Below, one piece after another: positions 1 through 26,661 of a DNA stretch of 34,591 bases (positions are counted from its first letter, which is position 1; every line of letters starts with the position of its first letter). Source of the stretch: Phycisphaerae bacterium (lineage in GTDB: Bacteria; Planctomycetota; Phycisphaerae; Phycisphaerales; UBA1924); the NCBI GenBank assembly GCA_030426395.1, contig JAUHYE010000025.1, positions 1 through 34,591 of the forward strand, in the 5' to 3' direction. Below the pieces are notes generated by a model that ran no database searches, was not told where the DNA came from, and worked only from the letters and a program-made list of their open reading frames with translations. The position numbers and the translations under genes are program-made.

Positions 1-1
1 G

Positions 2-199
2 TGCACGTTCTGTCTGCACCGCACCCGCAAGGGGAAGCTGCCGGCGTGTCTCGAGGCGTGCCCGACCGGCGCCCGCGTCTTCGGCAACCTCCTCGACCCC
101 AACAGCGAGATCCGCTGGGTCCTGGAGAACAAGCGGGTGTTCGTCCTCAAGGAGGAGCTCGGCACGCGCCCGCGCTTCTTCTACTTCTTCGATGAGTAG
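2..199 (+). CDS. 4Fe-4S dicluster domain protein, C-terminal part
   Basis: The 5' end lies outside the window. Reading from base 2 gives 65 residues with a CTFC motif, a basic stretch, then PACLEACPTGAR, followed by FG. This cysteine pattern is typical of electron-transfer subunits of the DmsB/PsrB/NrfC/ActB type, which pass electrons between a catalytic molybdopterin or quinone module and a membrane partner. The end, with a basic-aromatic segment closing in FFDE, looks like a natural C-terminus. An ATG at 192 overlaps the stop codon, the usual coupling to a downstream NrfD/PsrC membrane subunit, but that gene is cut short here. Family assignment is good; the exact complex cannot be decided from the fragment. 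Confidence 0.75.
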   Translation, partial: CTFCLHRTRKGKLPACLEACPTGARVFGNLLDPNSEIRWVLENKRVFVLKEELGTRPRFFYFFDE

Positions 200-242
200 G
201 CCGATGCAGACGGGATCATCGGCGAGAGCCCCGCCCGCGTGA
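192..242 (+). pseudogene. possible 5' stub of an NrfD/PsrC-type gene
   Basis: An ATG at 192 overlaps the stop of the 4Fe-4S gene and opens a reading frame of 16 codons (MSRPMQTGSSARAPPA) that ends at 240-242. In PsrB/PsrC-like operons the membrane subunit normally starts at such an overlap, so this may be its first codons, broken where the sequence switches to the permease gene. This is inference from the overlap and operon habit; the peptide itself is too short to identify. Confidence 0.25.
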
Positions 243-862
243 CCGACGTGCTTGTGCGCGCGGCCCCGGGCGTGAAGGGCGACGCGCTGGAGGCCGCCGC
301 CAAGGCCGTGTACGCCGACTTCGCCGATGCCCACCGCGGCGCGGTGCCCAGTGCTGCCAGGATCTCGATCCAGACCTACGAGCAGCGCAACGCGATGTTC
401 ATCGGCGCGGTGCAGAAGGAGACGACCTTAGTTTTGTTCATCTTCGGCGTGGTGAGCCTGACGAGCGTGTTCCTGGTGCTGGCGATCTTCTGGGCGATGG
501 TCAGCGAGAAGACGCGCGATATTGGTGTCCTGCGCGCCATCGGCGCGAGCGGCACGGGCGTCGCCGCGGTGTGGGTGGGCTACGGCCTGGCGATCGGCCT
601 GGTGGGCAGCGCCATGGGCGCGGGGCTGGCGGCGCTGATCGTCACGAACATCAACCCCATCCACGGGTGGATGGGCAAGGCCCTGGGCGTCCAAGTGTGG
701 GACCCCAGCGTCTACTACTTCACGACGATCCCCACCGACCTGGACGCGATGAAGTTCGTGATCATCGTGGCGGGCGGGATTATTGCGAGCGTTGTGGGCG
801 CGCTGGTGCCCGCGGCGCGGGCGGCGTGGATGGACCCGGTCAAAGCTCTTCGCTTTGACTGA
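239..862 (+). CDS. LolC/LolE-type ABC permease, N-terminally truncated
   Basis: The readable part is 207 residues from a GTG at 239. It has three membrane segments (about 63-88, 107-135, 172-195), the cytoplasmic loop KTRDIGVLRAIGAS (91-104), and a YYFTTIPTDLD segment before the last helix, as in FtsX-superfamily permeases of lipoprotein-release (LolC/E) type. Full-length members have about 400 residues with a first helix and a large periplasmic domain; here both are missing. The same frame stays open upstream to base 200, directly after the stop of the 4Fe-4S gene, and that upstream stretch also reads like permease (RVTDVLVRAAPGV). So the GTG is unlikely to be the true start, and the gene has probably lost its 5' half by deletion or misassembly. 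Confidence 0.7.
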   Translation: MTDVLVRAAPGVKGDALEAAAKAVYADFADAHRGAVPSAARISIQTYEQRNAMFIGAVQKETTLVLFIFGVVSLTSVFLVLAIFWAMVSEKTRDIGVLRAIGASGTGVAAVWVGYGLAIGLVGSAMGAGLAALIVTNINPIHGWMGKALGVQVWDPSVYYFTTIPTDLDAMKFVIIVAGGIIASVVGALVPAARAAWMDPVKALRFD

Positions 863-1011: not shown

Positions 1012-1224
1012 ATGAAACTTCGATATGAATTTCCCGCCGACAAGGTTCGCAAGGGCATTCGCTTGCTCGAGCTCGAAGAAGCCGACGGTGGCGCGTACGT
1101 GTACCTGTACGAGGACATCGAGTTGCCGTGCACGTGGGACCACTTCTACGCGACCATCGAAGCGGCGCTGTCCGCCTGGGAGGAAGAGGGCGTGAGCCGA
1201 TCGGACTGGCAGGAGGTCGAGTAA
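1012..1224 (+). CDS. hypothetical protein, 70 aa
   Basis: A short acidic protein starting MKLRYEFPAD and ending WQEVE, with no signal peptide or membrane segment. It is predicted as a compact alpha/beta domain with many Glu/Asp residues. Base composition is less GC-rich than its neighbours, and no clear ribosome-binding site precedes the ATG. I do not recognise the family. It is kept because the amino-acid composition is protein-like and no better frame covers the region. It stands alone between the truncated permease and a non-coding repeat array. Confidence 0.55.
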   Translation: MKLRYEFPADKVRKGIRLLELEEADGGAYVYLYEDIELPCTWDHFYATIEAALSAWEEEGVSRSDWQEVE

Positions 1225-1413
1225 CGTGGCGCGGTTCGCCGATGGCGGCCTGCGGCGCGAGCCGGCGGCCGCGTACTTCCGCCGCATCACGGTGTGAGCC
1301 CCCGGACGCATCGCCCGTTGCCACCACTCGCCGCCTCGCCCCACGGCCAGCGCAACTCTTGCGCGTCCGGATAAAGAATCCGCTCTGAGAGGCCGTGAGG
1401 GGTGTTTTCGCCC
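1225..1413. other. intergenic region before repeat array 1
   Basis: No convincing gene. It is C-rich around 1320-1350. Near the end a G4/C4 inverted repeat with a T-rich loop (about 1399-1414) could form a small hairpin directly in front of the 21-bp array; there is no T-tail. Confidence 0.4.
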
Positions 1414-1748
1414 CTGCGCACGGTGCGTAAGGCGCACCTTACGGACCCGAAGGCGCTGCGCACGGCCCGCAAGGCGCGCCTTTCGGCCCCCAAGGCACTG
1501 CGCACGGTCTGTAAGGCGCGCCGATCGGACCCGAGGACGCTGCGCATGGTCCGCCAGGCGCGTCCCATGGCCTCGAAGGCGCTGCGCACGGCCCATCAGG
1601 CGCGCCCGATGGCCCGCAGGACGCTGCGCACGCTCCGGGGTGCGCGCCCCCCGGAGCGAGGTGCGCGCCCCCGGCCCGAGGTGCGCGCCCCCCAAGCCGG
1701 CGTACGCTGCGCGCGGTCCGTGGGTGCCGCCTGCACCCCCACCTCTTG
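1414..1748. repeat. 21-bp periodic degenerate tandem array 1 (about 15 units)
   Basis: Unit starts fall at 1414, 1435, 1456, 1477, 1498, 1519, 1540, 1561, 1582, 1603, 1624 and 1645, all exactly 21 bp apart; one 20-bp unit starts at 1666, then 1686 and 1707. Odd units begin CTGCGCAC and even units CGCC, giving a 42-bp higher-order repeat. Unit positions 9-13 are mostly GGNCC, and most units end in AGGCG. Junctions between odd and even units are near-palindromic, for example AAGGCGCGCCTT around 1471-1482. Because 21 is a multiple of 3, the array is open in several frames on both strands (a 7- or 14-residue repeat), so ORFs here are probably artefacts. It lies between two plus-strand genes. Confidence 0.9.
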
Positions 1749-2008
1749 ATGACACCCGGTCGTCAGTTCGCCCCGGTGTACCGGGCCTCGCGGGGCTTGA
1801 GCAGGCCCGTCGCGCCGGTGATGGTGCCGCCCGCGGGTTGGCGCGAGGATCGTGCGTGCTCGGTGCCCTGGTCCGTCACCGCAGCGCTGGCGGGGCGACT
1901 TCCCCGATTTTCATCAAGTCCGAGAAACCGCCGTGCGCACGCCTGCGAAGCGCCAGGAGGCCCGAGGATTCGTACCCGGGCGGTCCAGCTCTCGTCTGGG
2001 GGTTCGTT
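1749..2008. other. upstream region of the dockerin protein gene
   Basis: No gene seen. It must hold the promoter of the downstream secreted protein, but no clear hexamer pair is visible. The 11-mer GTCCGAGAAAC at 1918-1928 recurs at 5257-5267 upstream of another secreted-protein gene of this cluster. GGGGG at about 1999-2003 is the likely ribosome-binding site. Confidence 0.35.
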
Positions 2009-4384
2009 ATGCCTGCGTGTTCGCTTCGGCCTTGCGTGGCCAGGCTCGTCCTTTCGGCGTTCGCGATGGCATTCGTTCCGTTGGGTGCGGTCGCCCAGAG
2101 TGGCTCCATCCTGCCCGTACCCATTGTGGCCCAGGACGACACCGCGATCGCTTCCGGCTCGTGGTTCACCGCGGCGGCCTTGGGCGATGTGGCGTCCGGC
2201 CCTGGGGGCGGGCCGGGCGGCGACGGCCTGGCCGACCTGGTCGTCACGCGCCGCGGGGCCTGGGGCACCCCCGGCGGAGATCCCGTGGAGTCCGGCATGC
2301 TGCTGGTCTATCGCGGCGATGGTGCGGGCGGCTTCGTGCCCGTCAGCGAGCTCTCGATCACGGGCGACCCCACGAGCCTCCAGTTGCTGGACGCCACCGG
2401 CGACGGCCGGCTGGACGCGGTGGTCACCGATGGGGCCGCCAGCACGCTGACGATCTATGCGGGGCTGGGCGGGGGCCGCTTCGAGCGTGTCGAGACGATC
2501 ACCACCGGCCGCACGCCGGTGGACTCGGCCCTGGCCGACGCGACCGGCGACGGCGTCCTGGACCTCCTGGTATGTAACTACGACCACTACTTCGTGGGCC
2601 TGCACGCGGGCCTGCCCGGCGGCGGTTTCGCGCCGGTGGTCCGCATCAGCGTCGGCACCCGGCCGGTCGAGATGGCCGTCATCGATCTCGACGGCGACGG
2701 TGACCTGGACGTGGTCACCGCCAACGAGTTGAGCAAGGATGTCTCGGTGGCCCTCAACGAAGGCGGCGCTTTCGCCGAGGCCGTGTCGGTCGGCATGGTC
2801 GACCGACCGACGGGCATCACCGCGGGCGATCTGAACGGCGACGGCCTGGCCGAGGTCATTGTCGCCGAGCGCGCCGGAGCACGGCTGTTCACCAACGACG
2901 GCGGCGAGCTGGCAGCGGGACCGCTGGTGGCGACGGCCGGCTCCGGCGGGGCGATGTCCGTCGTGCTGGCGGACTTCGGCGGCGACGGGCCGCTCGACCT
3001 GGGCGTGGCGGTGTCCGGGGGCGTCGAGGTGTACGCGGGTGACGCGTTGAGCGCCACGGGCCTGGCCGGCGAGGGCGGCCTGGTGGTGGCCGGCGGCCAA
3101 GTGGCGTCGGGCAGCGGTGGGCTCGCGGCCGGCGGCGTGATGGGGCGCGGCGCGGCGCTCCTGATCGTGGAGCCCGCGCGCGTGGCCATCGCCATGCCGG
3201 GCGAAGCGCCGCCCGCGGGGCTGGTGATGCCCGTGGTTCTTGCCCGGGGCATCGCTCGCACGCGGGTCGCCGGCGAGTTTACCGGCGACGGCGTCCCGGA
3301 CGTGCTGCTGGTGAGCGATGACGGTTCGTACCTGCTCGCGGGCCTTGGCGGCGGCGCCTTCGCCGACCCCACGCGCGTGGGCGTCGGGTCGTTCGCCGAC
3401 GAAGCGCTCGCCGCGCGGCTTCGGCCGGGCAGCGGCCTGGATGACGTGCTCCTCGTGGGCTCGACGCTGCTGCTGCTGCGTCCCGACGGCACGGGCGGCT
3501 TCGAGCCGCACATCGGCCTGGTCGGGGGCGTGCGGGCGGCGGCCGTCGGCGACCTGGACGGCGACGGCAACCTCGATGTGGTGACGGCGGGGATCGATCG
3601 GGCCTACCCGTTGTTCAACGACGGCGCGGGCAATCTTTCGATCGGCCCCACGCTGTTCCTGCCACGCCGCGGCGCGAGCGTGGACATCGGCGACGTGACC
3701 GGCGACGGCGTGGCGGACATCGTCGTGGCCGCCGCCGACAGCGGCACTGGCACGACGCCCTTCTATGTGTTCCGCGGGCTTGGCGGGGGCGCCTTCGGCG
3801 GCATCGGGACGTTCGACCTGGGGCTGCGTCTTGGGCTCAGCGTTCGCACCATCGACGTGGGCGCCGATCGCGACGCCGTCCTGCTGGTGCAGAGCCGCTC
3901 GATCGATCTCGTCGGCGACGTGCTGTTCCCCACCTCGACGCGCCGCCGGATCGTCACCACCAACGACCCGATCTACGACATCGACGTGCTGGACGTTGAC
4001 GGCGATGGGCGGATGGACTTCACCCTCAGCCAGCGCCAGACCGGGCTGACGGTGTGGCGGCAGGGTCCGGACGCTCGGTTCGAGCGCGCGGCCGGCTTCG
4101 GCTACTGGAGCGAGCGGGCCCAACTCACCGACGCCACCGGCGACGGCATCCTGGACGCGCTCATCGGCGCGTACTCGCTCACCATGCTGGCGATCGGTCA
4201 GGACGGCGCGCTGCCCGGCTGCGCCGCCGACCTGGACGGCGACGGCCGGGTGACGCTGCTGGACCACCTGCAATTCCAGAACTGGTTCGACGCGGGCGAC
4301 CTTCGCGCCGACATCGACGGCGATGGCGCGCTGACGATCTTCGACTTCCTGCGTTTCCAGGACGTCTTCGCTCTGGGCTGCTGA
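2009..4384 (+). CDS. secreted FG-GAP/VCBS repeat protein with GC-type dockerin-like C-terminus
   Basis: The start ATG at 2009 follows a G-rich ribosome-binding site and opens a signal peptide (MPACSLRPCVARLVLSAF..., cleavage near Ala-Gln at residue 30), giving 791 aa. The open frame extends further upstream, but only through non-coding sequence. The body holds at least ten calcium-binding-like motifs such as DATGDGRLDAVV, DLDGDGDLDVVT, DLNGDGLAEVIV and DVTGDGVADIVV, typical of FG-GAP/VCBS beta-propeller repeats. Residues 737-791 form a paired EF-hand module (DLDGDGRVT and DIDGDGALT) ending in Gly-Cys, as in planctomycete 'GC-type dockerin' proteins. Probable role: an exported, surface-anchored adhesion or scaffold protein. 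The two sorting-tail proteins downstream may be co-transcribed, since the first starts 24 bp after this stop. Confidence 0.88.
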   Translation: MPACSLRPCVARLVLSAFAMAFVPLGAVAQSGSILPVPIVAQDDTAIASGSWFTAAALGDVASGPGGGPGGDGLADLVVTRRGAWGTPGGDPVESGMLLVYRGDGAGGFVPVSELSITGDPTSLQLLDATGDGRLDAVVTDGAASTLTIYAGLGGGRFERVETITTGRTPVDSALADATGDGVLDLLVCNYDHYFVGLHAGLPGGGFAPVVRISVGTRPVEMAVIDLDGDGDLDVVTANELSKDVSVALNEGGAFAEAVSVGMVDRPTGITAGDLNGDGLAEVIVAERAGARLFTNDGGELAAGPLVATAGSGGAMSVVLADFGGDGPLDLGVAVSGGVEVYAGDALSATGLAGEGGLVVAGGQVASGSGGLAAGGVMGRGAALLIVEPARVAIAMPGEAPPAGLVMPVVLARGIARTRVAGEFTGDGVPDVLLVSDDGSYLLAGLGGGAFADPTRVGVGSFADEALAARLRPGSGLDDVLLVGSTLLLLRPDGTGGFEPHIGLVGGVRAAAVGDLDGDGNLDVVTAGIDRAYPLFNDGAGNLSIGPTLFLPRRGASVDIGDVTGDGVADIVVAAADSGTGTTPFYVFRGLGGGAFGGIGTFDLGLRLGLSVRTIDVGADRDAVLLVQSRSIDLVGDVLFPTSTRRRIVTTNDPIYDIDVLDVDGDGRMDFTLSQRQTGLTVWRQGPDARFERAAGFGYWSERAQLTDATGDGILDALIGAYSLTMLAIGQDGALPGCAADLDGDGRVTLLDHLQFQNWFDAGDLRADIDGDGALTIFDFLRFQDVFALGC

Positions 4385-12247: not shown

Positions 12248-12285
12248 GGGCCTCCGATCCGCCTTCGCCCGCCACCACGGGCCGC
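12248..12285 (+). repeat. 38-bp intergenic repeat R, copy 2
   Basis: 35 of 38 positions match 11589-11626. Its last seven bases (GGGCCGC) are also the start of the first unit of 21-bp array 2. Confidence 0.85.
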
Positions 12286-12488
12286 CCGCCCACCCCGCCG
12301 GGGCGAACGCCCGCCCGAACGGGCCGCTCGCCCCGTCCAATGGACCGCGTGCCCCGCTCGACGGGACGCGTGCCCCGTTGAACGGGACACGCGGTCGCAT
12401 GCCCGGGGCGTTCGCCCGGGCGGGGTTGGCGGGGGAAACCAGCACGGGGCACGCGGTCCGGCCGTCTGGGCGGGGGCGTGTGCGGGGC
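12279..12488. repeat. 21-bp periodic degenerate tandem array 2 (6 clear, up to 10 units)
   Basis: Unit starts fall at 12279, 12300, 12321, 12342, 12363, 12384, 12405, 12426, 12447 and 12468, all 21 bp apart. Most units begin GGG and have CCC or CCCC centred about 10 bp later, forming imperfect dyads such as GGGCGAACGCCC (12301-12312), GGGCGTTCGCCC (12406-12417) and GGGACGCGTGCCC (12363-12375). Units 12300-12383 are the best; later ones decay. The array is open in several frames as a 7-residue repeat but looks non-coding. It ends about 40 bp before the kmo -10-like hexamer. Confidence 0.82.
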
Positions 12489-22427: not shown

Positions 22428-22581
22428 GGTCGGGTTGTCCTTCGCGGGATTGGTCGGCTGGCGCCCGGCTCCGGCTGCCTGGGGCGATCGGGCCAATGCT
22501 ATGGGCCACGACACCCAAGACCAAGACCCCCGGAAACGGCCCCTGTGGATCAGGAACGGGGATGCCCAGCGACAGGGCGAC

Positions 22582-22587
22582 TACAGT
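22582..22587 (+). promoter_or_regulatory. -10-like TACAGT, leaderless start
   Basis: TACAGT ends 6 nt before the ATG at 22594. Same spacing as before kmo, with no ribosome-binding site between. Confidence 0.42.
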
Positions 22588-22593
22588 GCCCCG

Positions 22594-23835
22594 ATGCTGC
22601 TCGCCCTTGCCGCCCGTTCCTTGCGCTCCATGCTCGTGGGCAAGGACGCCAGCCTGACGCTGACCGACCTGCCGCGCTTCGCGCACGAGCAACTGGGCCT
22701 GCACGGGCTCATGCTGTCGGCCGACCTCTTGGCCGGCCGCACACGCGACGACCTGGCCCGCTTGCGCGATGCCGCCGACCGGGCCCGGTGCTCCTGCCTG
22801 GTGCTCTTCGAGGAAGACCCCCAGAAGCTGGCCGCTGCTGATGGCAGCGCCGCCGAGGAGCGCATCCGCCGGGTCATGGCCGCCGCCAGCCTGCTGGGCT
22901 GCAACGCCGCGGGCGTCGCCATCGACGCCCCGGACACGCCCGACGCGCTCGACGTCGTGTCCGACCGGCTCAAGGCCCTCATGGCCGAGGCCGAGCAGCG
23001 GGAGATCAACCTGCTCGTCATGCCCGGGCCCCTGGGGTCTAGCCAGAACCAGAGCCAGGGCCTGACCTCCTCGCCCGAACGCCTGACCGAGTTGCTCAAG
23101 AAGGTCGGCGGCTTCCGCGTGGGCACCATGCCCGACTTCGCCGACGCCGCCCGGGCCGAAGACATGCCCGCCTACCTGCGCAAGGTCACGCCCTACGCCT
23201 CGGCCGTGCTCGGTTCGACGCTGGGCTTCAAGGCATTGGATGGCGCGTTGGACGACGAGCGGGCCATCGTCGAGCACGAGGGCTTCGACCTGGCCGCGGC
23301 CGTCGAGGCGATTGCCGCCGTGGGCTACGACGGCGCCGTGGGCCTGGACTACCGCGGCCCGGGCGACCTAGGCATGGGTCTGCGCCGCAGCCGCGAGGGC
23401 TTCTCGCTGGCGATGGAGGGCAAGGGCGGCCCCTTCAGCCTCGTGCACGACGAGGAAGAGTTCGACGAGGAGATGGACGCCGCCGCCGCCGCGTTGCTCG
23501 ACGCGATCTTCAACGACGAGAGCGACGACGAGGACGAGGAGGACGACGGCGACGAGGACGACGCGACCCGCGGCGAGAGCGACACCGACGACGACGCGTC
23601 TGAGGACGGCGACGTCGACGACGAGGACGACGCCCCCAGGCGGGTCGTGACCAGGAAGAAGACGACGAAGAAGGCCTCGAAGGAGGCGCCCGAGGGCGAC
23701 GAGTCCGCGGCCCCCCAAAAGAAGACGACAAAGAAAACGAGCAAGAAATCCTCGAAGAAGACCACCAAAAAGGCCGCCAAGGGCCCATCCGATCCAGAAG
23801 CCCAGCCCCGGGACGACGACGGAGACGAGGCATGA
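22594..23835 (+). CDS. TIM-barrel (xylose-isomerase-like) protein with acidic and lysine-rich tail
   Basis: 413 aa from ATG at 22594, chosen because a -10-like hexamer sits just before it; the open frame further upstream is spurious. Residues 1-285 resemble sugar-phosphate isomerase/epimerase TIM barrels: LTLTDLPRFAHEQLGLHGLML, CNAAGVAIDAP, INLLVMPGPLGSS, LTELLKKVGGFRVGTMPDF, GYDGAVGLDYRGPGD near the end. The usual metal ligands are not all obvious, so activity is uncertain. Residues about 306-346 are almost all Asp/Glu, and 349-398 are a Lys/Thr/Ser/Ala tract (KKTTKKTSKKSSKKTTKKAA) like a histone H1 tail. The tail may bind DNA, RNA or ribosomes; that is inference. The stop overlaps the cmk start (ATGA), so the genes are coupled. 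Confidence 0.78.
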   Translation: MLLALAARSLRSMLVGKDASLTLTDLPRFAHEQLGLHGLMLSADLLAGRTRDDLARLRDAADRARCSCLVLFEEDPQKLAAADGSAAEERIRRVMAAASLLGCNAAGVAIDAPDTPDALDVVSDRLKALMAEAEQREINLLVMPGPLGSSQNQSQGLTSSPERLTELLKKVGGFRVGTMPDFADAARAEDMPAYLRKVTPYASAVLGSTLGFKALDGALDDERAIVEHEGFDLAAAVEAIAAVGYDGAVGLDYRGPGDLGMGLRRSREGFSLAMEGKGGPFSLVHDEEEFDEEMDAAAAALLDAIFNDESDDEDEEDDGDEDDATRGESDTDDDASEDGDVDDEDDAPRRVVTRKKTTKKASKEAPEGDESAAPQKKTTKKTSKKSSKKTTKKAAKGPSDPEAQPRDDDGDEA

Positions 23836-26337: not shown

Positions 26338-26404
26338 ACCCGATCGAGCCGGTTCGATCGGTTGTGTTTCCTCTTTCGAGCGCACACCCCATCGCCCACC
26401 ACCC
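26338..26404. other. intergenic lead-in to array 3
   Basis: No gene. The stretch 26391-26404 (TCGCCCACCACC core) resembles the TCGCCCGCCACC part of repeat R copy 2, which also lies directly before a 21-bp array. Confidence 0.3.
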
Positions 26405-26572
26405 GTCGACGTCCCCGGGCCCGCGGTCGACGCGCCCCGATACCCCGTCGACCCGCCGCCGCGGACGGTCGACGGCACCCGAACAATGGTCGACCATCGC
26501 GTGCGTGCGGTCGACCGGATGGCGCGAATGGTCGACCGGATGGAGCAAACGGTCGACCGTTGGGGCCCGATG
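26405..26572. repeat. 21-bp periodic array 3: eight GTCGAC palindromes
   Basis: GTCGAC starts at 26405, 26426, 26447, 26468, 26489, 26510, 26531 and 26552, each exactly 21 bp after the last. The 15 bp between them are largely unrelated. Some flanks extend the dyad: ATGGTCGACCAT at 26486-26497 and AACGGTCGACCGTT at 26548-26561 are perfect 12- and 14-bp palindromes. All frames stay open as 7-residue repeats, so ORFs here are artefacts. The array lies between convergent genes (a lipoprotein and a MacB-type permease), where a promoter function is less likely. Confidence 0.95.
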
Positions 26573-26661
26573 GGGTGTGCTGGCGGCCTCCGAGGGCCGT
26601 TTTCCCGAACAATGCGCAAATAGAAACGAACGCGGCCGCGCACCCGGCCGCAGGCCGCGCC
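26573..26661. other. intergenic region after array 3
   Basis: No gene. GC-rich inverted repeats of GCGGCC around 26630-26660 (GCGGCCGC, CGGCCGC, GGCCGCG) could terminate the minus-strand permease transcript, but no T-run follows. Confidence 0.3.

What the first reader, a model, noticed from the sequence alone, without database searches (positions are those of the whole stretch)
1414..1748. Fifteen-unit 21-bp array with alternating odd/even units and a GGNCC core
Twelve units follow one another at exactly 21 bp, one is 20 bp, and two or three more follow. Odd units start CTGCGCAC and even units CGCC, so there is a 42-bp higher-order repeat whose junctions are near-palindromes (AAGGCG against CGCCTT). 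The core GGNCC is itself a dyad. The pattern predicts two classes of phased sites interleaved on one DNA face. The region lies upstream of a surface-protein cluster.
Basis: seen in the sequence. Interest (0 to 1): 0.68.

Follow-up and report, generated by a model that had tools for sequence, protein, structure and literature searches.

The report
Helix-phased 21-base repeat arrays
The repeat is real and is one of many non-coding arrays in this bacterium that all repeat every 21 bases (two DNA turns) although their sequences differ, and in this genus such arrays sit in front of most copies of one expanded gene family, which gives a first handle on a kind of bacterial repeat whose role is unknown.

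Summary
The array is real: 12 exact 21-bp units from 1414, a one-base slip near 1672, about 14.8 units to 1724; lag-42 identity 0.75 against lag-21 0.58. It is not coding. It is one of many: in 435 kb of this Phycisphaeraceae genome, 15 of 16 non-coding arrays found at lags 10-63 have period 21, with unrelated unit sequences. Over 39 arrays (456 units, 2,233 non-consensus bases) only 4 register shifts occur, and indels inside orthologous arrays are exactly 21 bp. Units are dyad-enriched at DNA level, with no strand bias. Orthologous sites in congeners carry 21-bp arrays of unrelated sequence. This fits the published 'constant size, variable sequence' 20-21-nt bacterial tandem repeats. New here: a ~230-aa gene family with an Fn3-like domain (41 copies here, 13-27 in five congeners, none in one) has such an array on its 5' side in 29 of 39 testable own-genome copies, on the 3' side in 0 of 41, against 22 of 378 control genes. 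The window's own array lacks that gene; it stands 285-337 bp before a surface-protein gene. Most likely function (inferred): a helically phased DNA platform for a protein assembling along one face.

The parts
1414..1724 (.). 21-bp array of the finding: 12 exact units 1414-1665, one-base register shift near 1672, decayed units to 1724; 42-bp higher-order period
12264..12419 (.). second 21-bp array (7.4 units), different unit sequence, upstream of a kynurenine-3-monooxygenase-like (FAD) gene; conserved at the same place in congeners G004 and G003
   Evidence: gene domain (specific enzyme name recalled)
26389..26573 (.). third 21-bp array (8.8 units, GGTCGACC-type core), between convergent genes
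2009..4384 (+). secreted FG-GAP-repeat protein with dockerin-like C-terminus; start codon 285 bp after 1724 (337 bp after 1672)
   Evidence: no match at E<=1e-30 in 6 congeners
1012..1224 (+). small gene on the other side of the array (70 aa, no Pfam match)
1402..1749 (+). open frame across the array (115 aa); judged not a gene

Best explanation
The feature is a non-coding array of about fifteen 21-bp units, each two helical turns long, belonging to a class of arrays with constant period and freely changing sequence. SHOWN: period 21 is almost the only non-coding tandem period in the sampled genome; register is kept while bases change; arrays gain and lose whole units; units tend to be dyads without strand bias; arrays stand mostly between genes and, for one expanded gene family, on its 5' side about 300 bp before the start codon. 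INFERRED: the array works as DNA, as a phased platform on which a dimeric or oligomerising protein of low or locus-specific sequence preference assembles along one face of the helix, and so controls or insulates the neighbouring transcription unit. Whole-unit gain and loss changes the size of the platform without breaking its phase. In the window the likely target is the surface-protein gene at 2009-4384.
For: Period: outside called genes, lag 21 gives 15 arrays, lag 15 one, all other lags from 10 to 63 none except the multiples 42 and 63. Register: 39 arrays, 456 units, 2,233 non-consensus bases, 4 shifts. Indels inside orthologous arrays all 21 bp (G000/G004, G000/G003, G004/G003, G000/G006), other intergenic indels in the same alignments 1, 2, 4, 10, 29 bp. 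Dyads: 22 of 24 arrays positive against dinucleotide-preserving column permutation, mean z 1.64, Stouffer 8.0. No RNA-like strand bias: on the sense strand of 9 arrays between co-directional genes 97 G-T and 149 A-C pairs. Same place, other sequence: upstream of an ATP synthase alpha/beta gene four congeners carry arrays whose units match 8-12 of 21, chance being 10.4. Linkage to a gene family on the 5' side: 29 of 39 against 22 of 378.
Against: No binding protein is identified. No motif is shared by the 24 arrays tested, so one sequence-specific binder for all is unlikely. Covariation that preserves dyads is weak overall (mean z 0.69 over 23 arrays with the best axis chosen). Intrinsic curvature is not above control. 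Arrays lie in all gene orientations, also between convergent genes, where a promoter role makes no sense. The window's array has no copy of the linked gene family near it. Arrays are found by an ungapped lag score, which favours arrays without indels.
Confidence: 0.42

Rival explanations
1. Mutational ruler without function: a replication or repair process in this genus duplicates DNA in 21-bp (two-turn) steps, helped by quasi-palindromes; arrays expand, drift and move by recombination.
For: Sequence is free, edge units are more decayed (0.68) than middle units (0.80); arrays copy themselves elsewhere, e.g. 300 bp at 85% with a long identical core, homology confined to the array; arrays were not found in the genus member G001 in 100 kb sampled.
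Against: Near absence of register shifts despite about 20-25% non-consensus bases; persistence at orthologous sites while the units change; strong one-sided linkage to one gene family.
Confidence: 0.27
2. RNA function: the array is transcribed and its hairpins act as RNA, for instance as an RNA partner of the downstream protein, as in type III toxin-antitoxin loci where repeats precede the toxin gene.
For: Arrays fold better than controls: better-strand mean z -4.45 against dinucleotide shuffles and -3.2 against column permutation, 24 arrays; position 5' of the gene family.
Against: Both strands fold about equally; sense strand is the better one in 4 of 9 arrays between co-directional genes; no excess of G-U pairs on the sense strand; the linked protein has an Fn3-like, not a nuclease, domain; arrays also lie between convergent genes.
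Confidence: 0.12
3. Recombination site: arrays are the junctions at which gene cassettes (surface proteins, the Fn3-like family) are exchanged or copied between loci.
For: Arrays border variable gene content between conserved genes (FtsX to UvrD interval); array copies exist at other loci with and without the linked gene.
Against: An array on one side only (0 of 41 on the 3' side); no target duplications or flanking repeats were looked for; no RAYT (PF01797) or Cas1 (PF01867) match in this genome.
Confidence: 0.13
4. Coding repeat: the 115-aa open frame 1402-1749 is a basic 14-residue-repeat protein.
For: 21 is a multiple of 3 and the frame is open.
Against: Over 24 arrays non-consensus bases are spread evenly over codon positions (0.403 against 0.410 simulated, p 0.76); in this array codon position 2 of that frame varies most (12, 30, 23); no Pfam match; a one-base shift at 1672 breaks the frame of the repeat; orthologous intervals have units unrelated to the window's.
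Confidence: 0.03

Closest known systems
Constant-size, variable-sequence non-coding tandem repeats of 20-21 nt (40-42 nt) in bacteria (Subirana and Messeguer; PMC8161180 passages and named sections read; their J Bacteriol 2020 paper, doi 10.1128/JB.00229-20, not held and not read)
   Same: Fixed repeat size of two helical turns, many arrays per genome with different sequences, mostly non-coding, occasional double-size repeat, species-specific families, function unknown; those authors already note two turns of DNA and propose a polymerising protein or small RNA.
   Different: Here in a Phycisphaeraceae genus; no short sequence common to the arrays was found, whereas they report one for most arrays of a species; dyad enrichment, whole-unit indels, same-site arrays of unrelated sequence and the one-sided linkage to an expanded gene family are added here (the words palindrom and hairpin have 0 hits in that paper's main text).
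Intergenic tandem repeats of lake Planctomycetota (PMC9426551, passages read)
   Different: No period or sequence is given in the passages seen; different lineages.
Type III toxin-antitoxin loci such as ToxIN (recalled)
   Same: A tandem array stands 5' of a protein gene and its sequence differs from locus to locus.
   Different: Recalled repeats are longer and few and are transcribed; the protein here is Fn3-like and there is no RNA signature.
REP/BIME elements with RAYT transposases (recalled; GTAG-REP paper PMC3733652 seen in a search listing only)
   Same: Intergenic palindromic units in clusters, in alternating arrangement.
   Different: REPs share sequence across the genome; here arrays share period but not sequence, and no Y1 transposase match in this genome.

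Membership tests
Constant-size variable-sequence 20-21-nt tandem repeats | At least four tandem units of constant 20-21 nt | tested here: met
   12 exact 21-bp units; 39 arrays of period 21
Constant-size variable-sequence 20-21-nt tandem repeats | Many arrays in one genome with the same size and different sequences | tested here: met
   15 non-coding arrays in 435 kb; most of 741 unit pairs match as by chance, a few families exceed it
Constant-size variable-sequence 20-21-nt tandem repeats | Not part of protein genes | tested here: met
   codon-position test, intergenic position; one further array, L032 1171-1441, lies in a called frame and may be coding
Constant-size variable-sequence 20-21-nt tandem repeats | Short characteristic sequence in most arrays of the species (reported, not strictly defining) | tested here: not met
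Type III toxin-antitoxin | Repeat array 5' of a protein gene | tested here: met
   29 of 39 copies of the linked family; for the window's array the neighbour is another gene
Type III toxin-antitoxin | ToxN-like endoribonuclease | tested here: not met
   Fn3-like C-terminal domain, PDB 3mpc E 1.5e-6; no PADLOC match in 18 members
Type III toxin-antitoxin | Transcribed repeats that bind the protein as RNA | not testable with these tools
   no RNA data
REP/BIME | Genome-wide shared palindrome and RAYT transposase | tested here: not met
   no common unit; PF01797 no match in G000
CRISPR array | Constant repeats with unique spacers and Cas1 | tested here: not met
   no spacers; PF01867 no match in G000

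The most novel reading that the evidence does not exclude
Array and Fn3-like gene are the two halves of one expanded, dispersing system: each of up to 41 loci carries its own 21-bp array as cognate nucleic-acid partner (operator or RNA) of its own protein, and stand-alone arrays such as the window's are platforms that have spread from it to other genes.
Probability: 0.13. Interest if true: 0.85.

Novelty: new variant of a known kind. Interest (0 to 1): 0.6.

Why it matters
Bacterial arrays that keep their period and not their sequence have been described, but their role is open. This genus offers what was missing: orthologous sites at which sequence turns over while period stays, whole-unit indels, dyads without strand bias, and a gene family that carries an array on its 5' side and that is single-copy, or not found at the cut-off used, in the genomes of other genera where small samples showed no arrays. 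That turns 'why 21?' into tests on named loci.

Tried and rejected
Coding repeat: rejected. Shared motif or GGNCC core for the class: not found. RNA hairpins read from one strand: no sense-strand preference and no G-U excess. REP/RAYT and CRISPR: no matching enzyme in this genome. Compensatory change inside arrays: weak. Association with dockerin-type genes: 5 of 29 flanks against 21 of 378 genes, p 0.016, post hoc with a home-made pattern that missed at least one member, not pursued. Viral relatives of the linked protein: none by tblastn in two scans. Remnants of the linked gene near the window's array: only chance-level scores. The codon-position control on coding arrays stopped with an error after 9 of 16 and was uninformative. 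The neutral indel yardstick rests on a few alignments only; a third, non-array intergenic alignment there was too diverged to trust.

Limits: gene calls are my own script, not a standard caller. The lead to the gene family was found after the fact from one flank; leaving out the two own-genome copies known before the census gives 27 of 37. Two tiny contigs of G010 were fetched and not used.

Full report
OBSERVATION. The array is there. At 1414-1637 lag-21 identity is 0.58 and lag-42 identity 0.75, both far above 1000 dinucleotide shuffles. Twelve units start at exactly 21-bp steps; a profile model adds a one-base shift at 1672 and decayed units to 1724, 14.8 units in all. The alternation of odd and even units is real (lag 42 exceeds lag 21). 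GGNCC is exact in 7 of 12 units and the junction palindrome is perfect once.

NOT ALONE. I scored lags 10 to 63 in 434,591 bases of the same genome (the window and 20 stretches of 20 kb; about 12%). Outside my gene calls, 15 arrays have lag 21 (12 also pass at lag 42, 7 at 63), one has lag 15, and no other lag gives any. Inside genes the lags are multiples of three of many sizes. The 15 arrays are 98-345 bp long, in all gene orientations. Extrapolated, the genome would hold about 120. Among 37 arrays with enough length, 23 have lag-42 above lag-21 identity.

WHOSE GENOME.

DISTRIBUTION. Same genus, stretches chosen by place: G003 2 arrays in 60 kb, G004 1 in 80 kb, G005 1 in 60 kb, G006 0 in 40 kb, G002 0 in 40 kb, G001 0 in 100 kb; G006 and G002 have them at targeted loci. 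Eleven genomes of other genera, about 340 kb in all: none of period 21. In 78 named loci of other taxa, 1.1 Mb, lag 21 occurs at 2 places among many other lags.

NOT CODING. In 24 arrays non-consensus bases are even over codon positions (0.403, simulation 0.410, p 0.76).

WHAT IS CONSTRAINED. (a) Register: 39 arrays, 456 units, 2,233 non-consensus bases, 4 one-base shifts; edge units are more decayed (0.68) than middle ones (0.80). Detection by an ungapped score favours this result, so I let the model extend 150 bp each way with indels allowed. (b) Indels between species inside two orthologous arrays are 21 bp in every pair compared; in the adjoining intergenic DNA they are 1, 2, 4, 10 and 29 bp. 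Few events, but clean. (c) Dyads: mean z 1.64 over 24 arrays, 22 positive; two arrays are negative, one of which may be coding. For the window's array alone z is 1.1. (d) Strand-symmetric folding: better-strand z -4.45 and -3.2 on two controls, without sense-strand preference or G-U excess. (e) Not constrained: sequence and modelled curvature.

SAME PLACE, OTHER SEQUENCE. In the interval that runs from an FtsX-type gene to a UvrD-type helicase gene, the window, G003, G004 and G005 each have a 21-bp array near variable genes (in three of the four directly before a surface-type gene); the units of G003 and G005 are related (17 of 21), the others match as by chance (10-11 of 21 with the window's). 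Upstream of an ATP synthase alpha/beta gene G000, G003, G004 and G006 have arrays with 8-12 of 21 matches, chance mean 10.4; none was found in G001, G002 and G005. By contrast the array before the monooxygenase is the same in G000, G003 and G004 and absent there in G005, G006, G002 and G001.

MOBILE ARRAYS. The array L049 17836-18180 has a second copy in the same genome, 300 bp, 85%, no gaps, homology confined to the array; another has copies at 82% and 73%. The window's array has no second copy (next best E 0.03).

A LINKED GENE FAMILY. A flank of one array led to a protein of about 230 residues. At E 1e-10 there are 41 copies in this genome, 27 in G004, 23 in G003, 19 in G006, 14 in G005, 13 in G002 and 0 in G001; in 14 genomes of other genera two have one each and twelve none. 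Of 30 loci fetched over six genomes, 24 have a 21-bp array 5' and 2 have one 3'. Full census here: 39 of 41 copies have at least 700 bp upstream; 29 of these 39 have an array 5' (58-463 bp), 0 of 41 have one 3' within 900 bp; of 378 called genes 22 have one 5' and 25 one 3' (Fisher 1.4e-22 for the 5' side, and 0.16, not significant, for the 3' side). One more copy has a 63-bp-period array. The gene has a ribosome-binding consensus before ATG, and the median distance from array end to start is 303 bp (47 loci). Unit similarity follows protein similarity only at the top (13.4 of 21 in 11 pairs above 70% identity, 11.8 at 55-70%, about 10.5 below; overall rank correlation nil). The protein has an Fn3-like C-terminal domain (3mpc, E 1.5e-6), a variable N-terminal half, only isolated weak Pfam matches, none in PHROGs (3 members) or PADLOC; the only NCBIfam listing was chance-level. 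Five of 16 arrays of the sample (15 plus L044 3150-3367) stand 5' of this family; the others, the window's among them, do not.

MECHANISM. Shown: period, register, whole-unit change, dyads, position. Inferred: a protein assembling along one face of the DNA. Two turns per unit keep every site on the same face, and whole-unit change keeps phase. The one-sided position about 300 bp before a start codon suits an upstream regulatory platform; arrays between convergent genes argue for a wider or older role, or for drift. A two-turn mutational ruler remains the strongest rival.

KNOWN. Subirana and Messeguer described non-coding repeats of constant 20-21 nt size and variable sequence in Bacillus and other groups, noted the two turns, and left the function open (PMC8161180: passages, part 1 of the text, sections 3.3 and 4.1). 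Planctomycetota of lakes have many deletions in intergenic tandem repeats (PMC9426551, passages). My searches listed no paper whose title or shown abstract treats 21-bp arrays in Phycisphaerae or their link to a gene family; most subscription papers are not in that library.

Noticed in passing
window 1-862: The FtsX-type gene at the contig start (200-862) has a 220-codon open frame where six congeners have open frames of 535-632 codons, preceded by an iron-sulphur-like fragment: truncation, fusion or assembly join.
   Followed up: no
L031 18493-19098 and L042 16391-16972: Two similar genes for secreted proteins with PEP-CTERM-like ends, each with a 21-bp array on the 5' side (179 and 137 bp); possibly a second linked family.
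   Followed up: partly
L034 14162-14682, L045 8011-8377: Coding 15-bp-type repeats for Lys/Arg/Thr/Ala-rich stretches, like histone H1-type tails.
   Followed up: no
window 23513-23632: Repeat for an acidic stretch inside the xylose-isomerase-like gene 22501-23835.
   Followed up: no
L302 2324-2429 (G012): The single copy of the linked gene in another genus also has a short array 5' (lags 14, 16 and 21), perhaps a 7-bp-based forerunner.
   Followed up: no
L150 7530-7700 (G004), L159 1286-1409 (G013): Non-coding arrays of other periods: 45 bp and 19/38 bp.
   Followed up: no
L273 upstream of the family gene: Array with 63-bp period (3 x 21) without significant lag 21.
   Followed up: no
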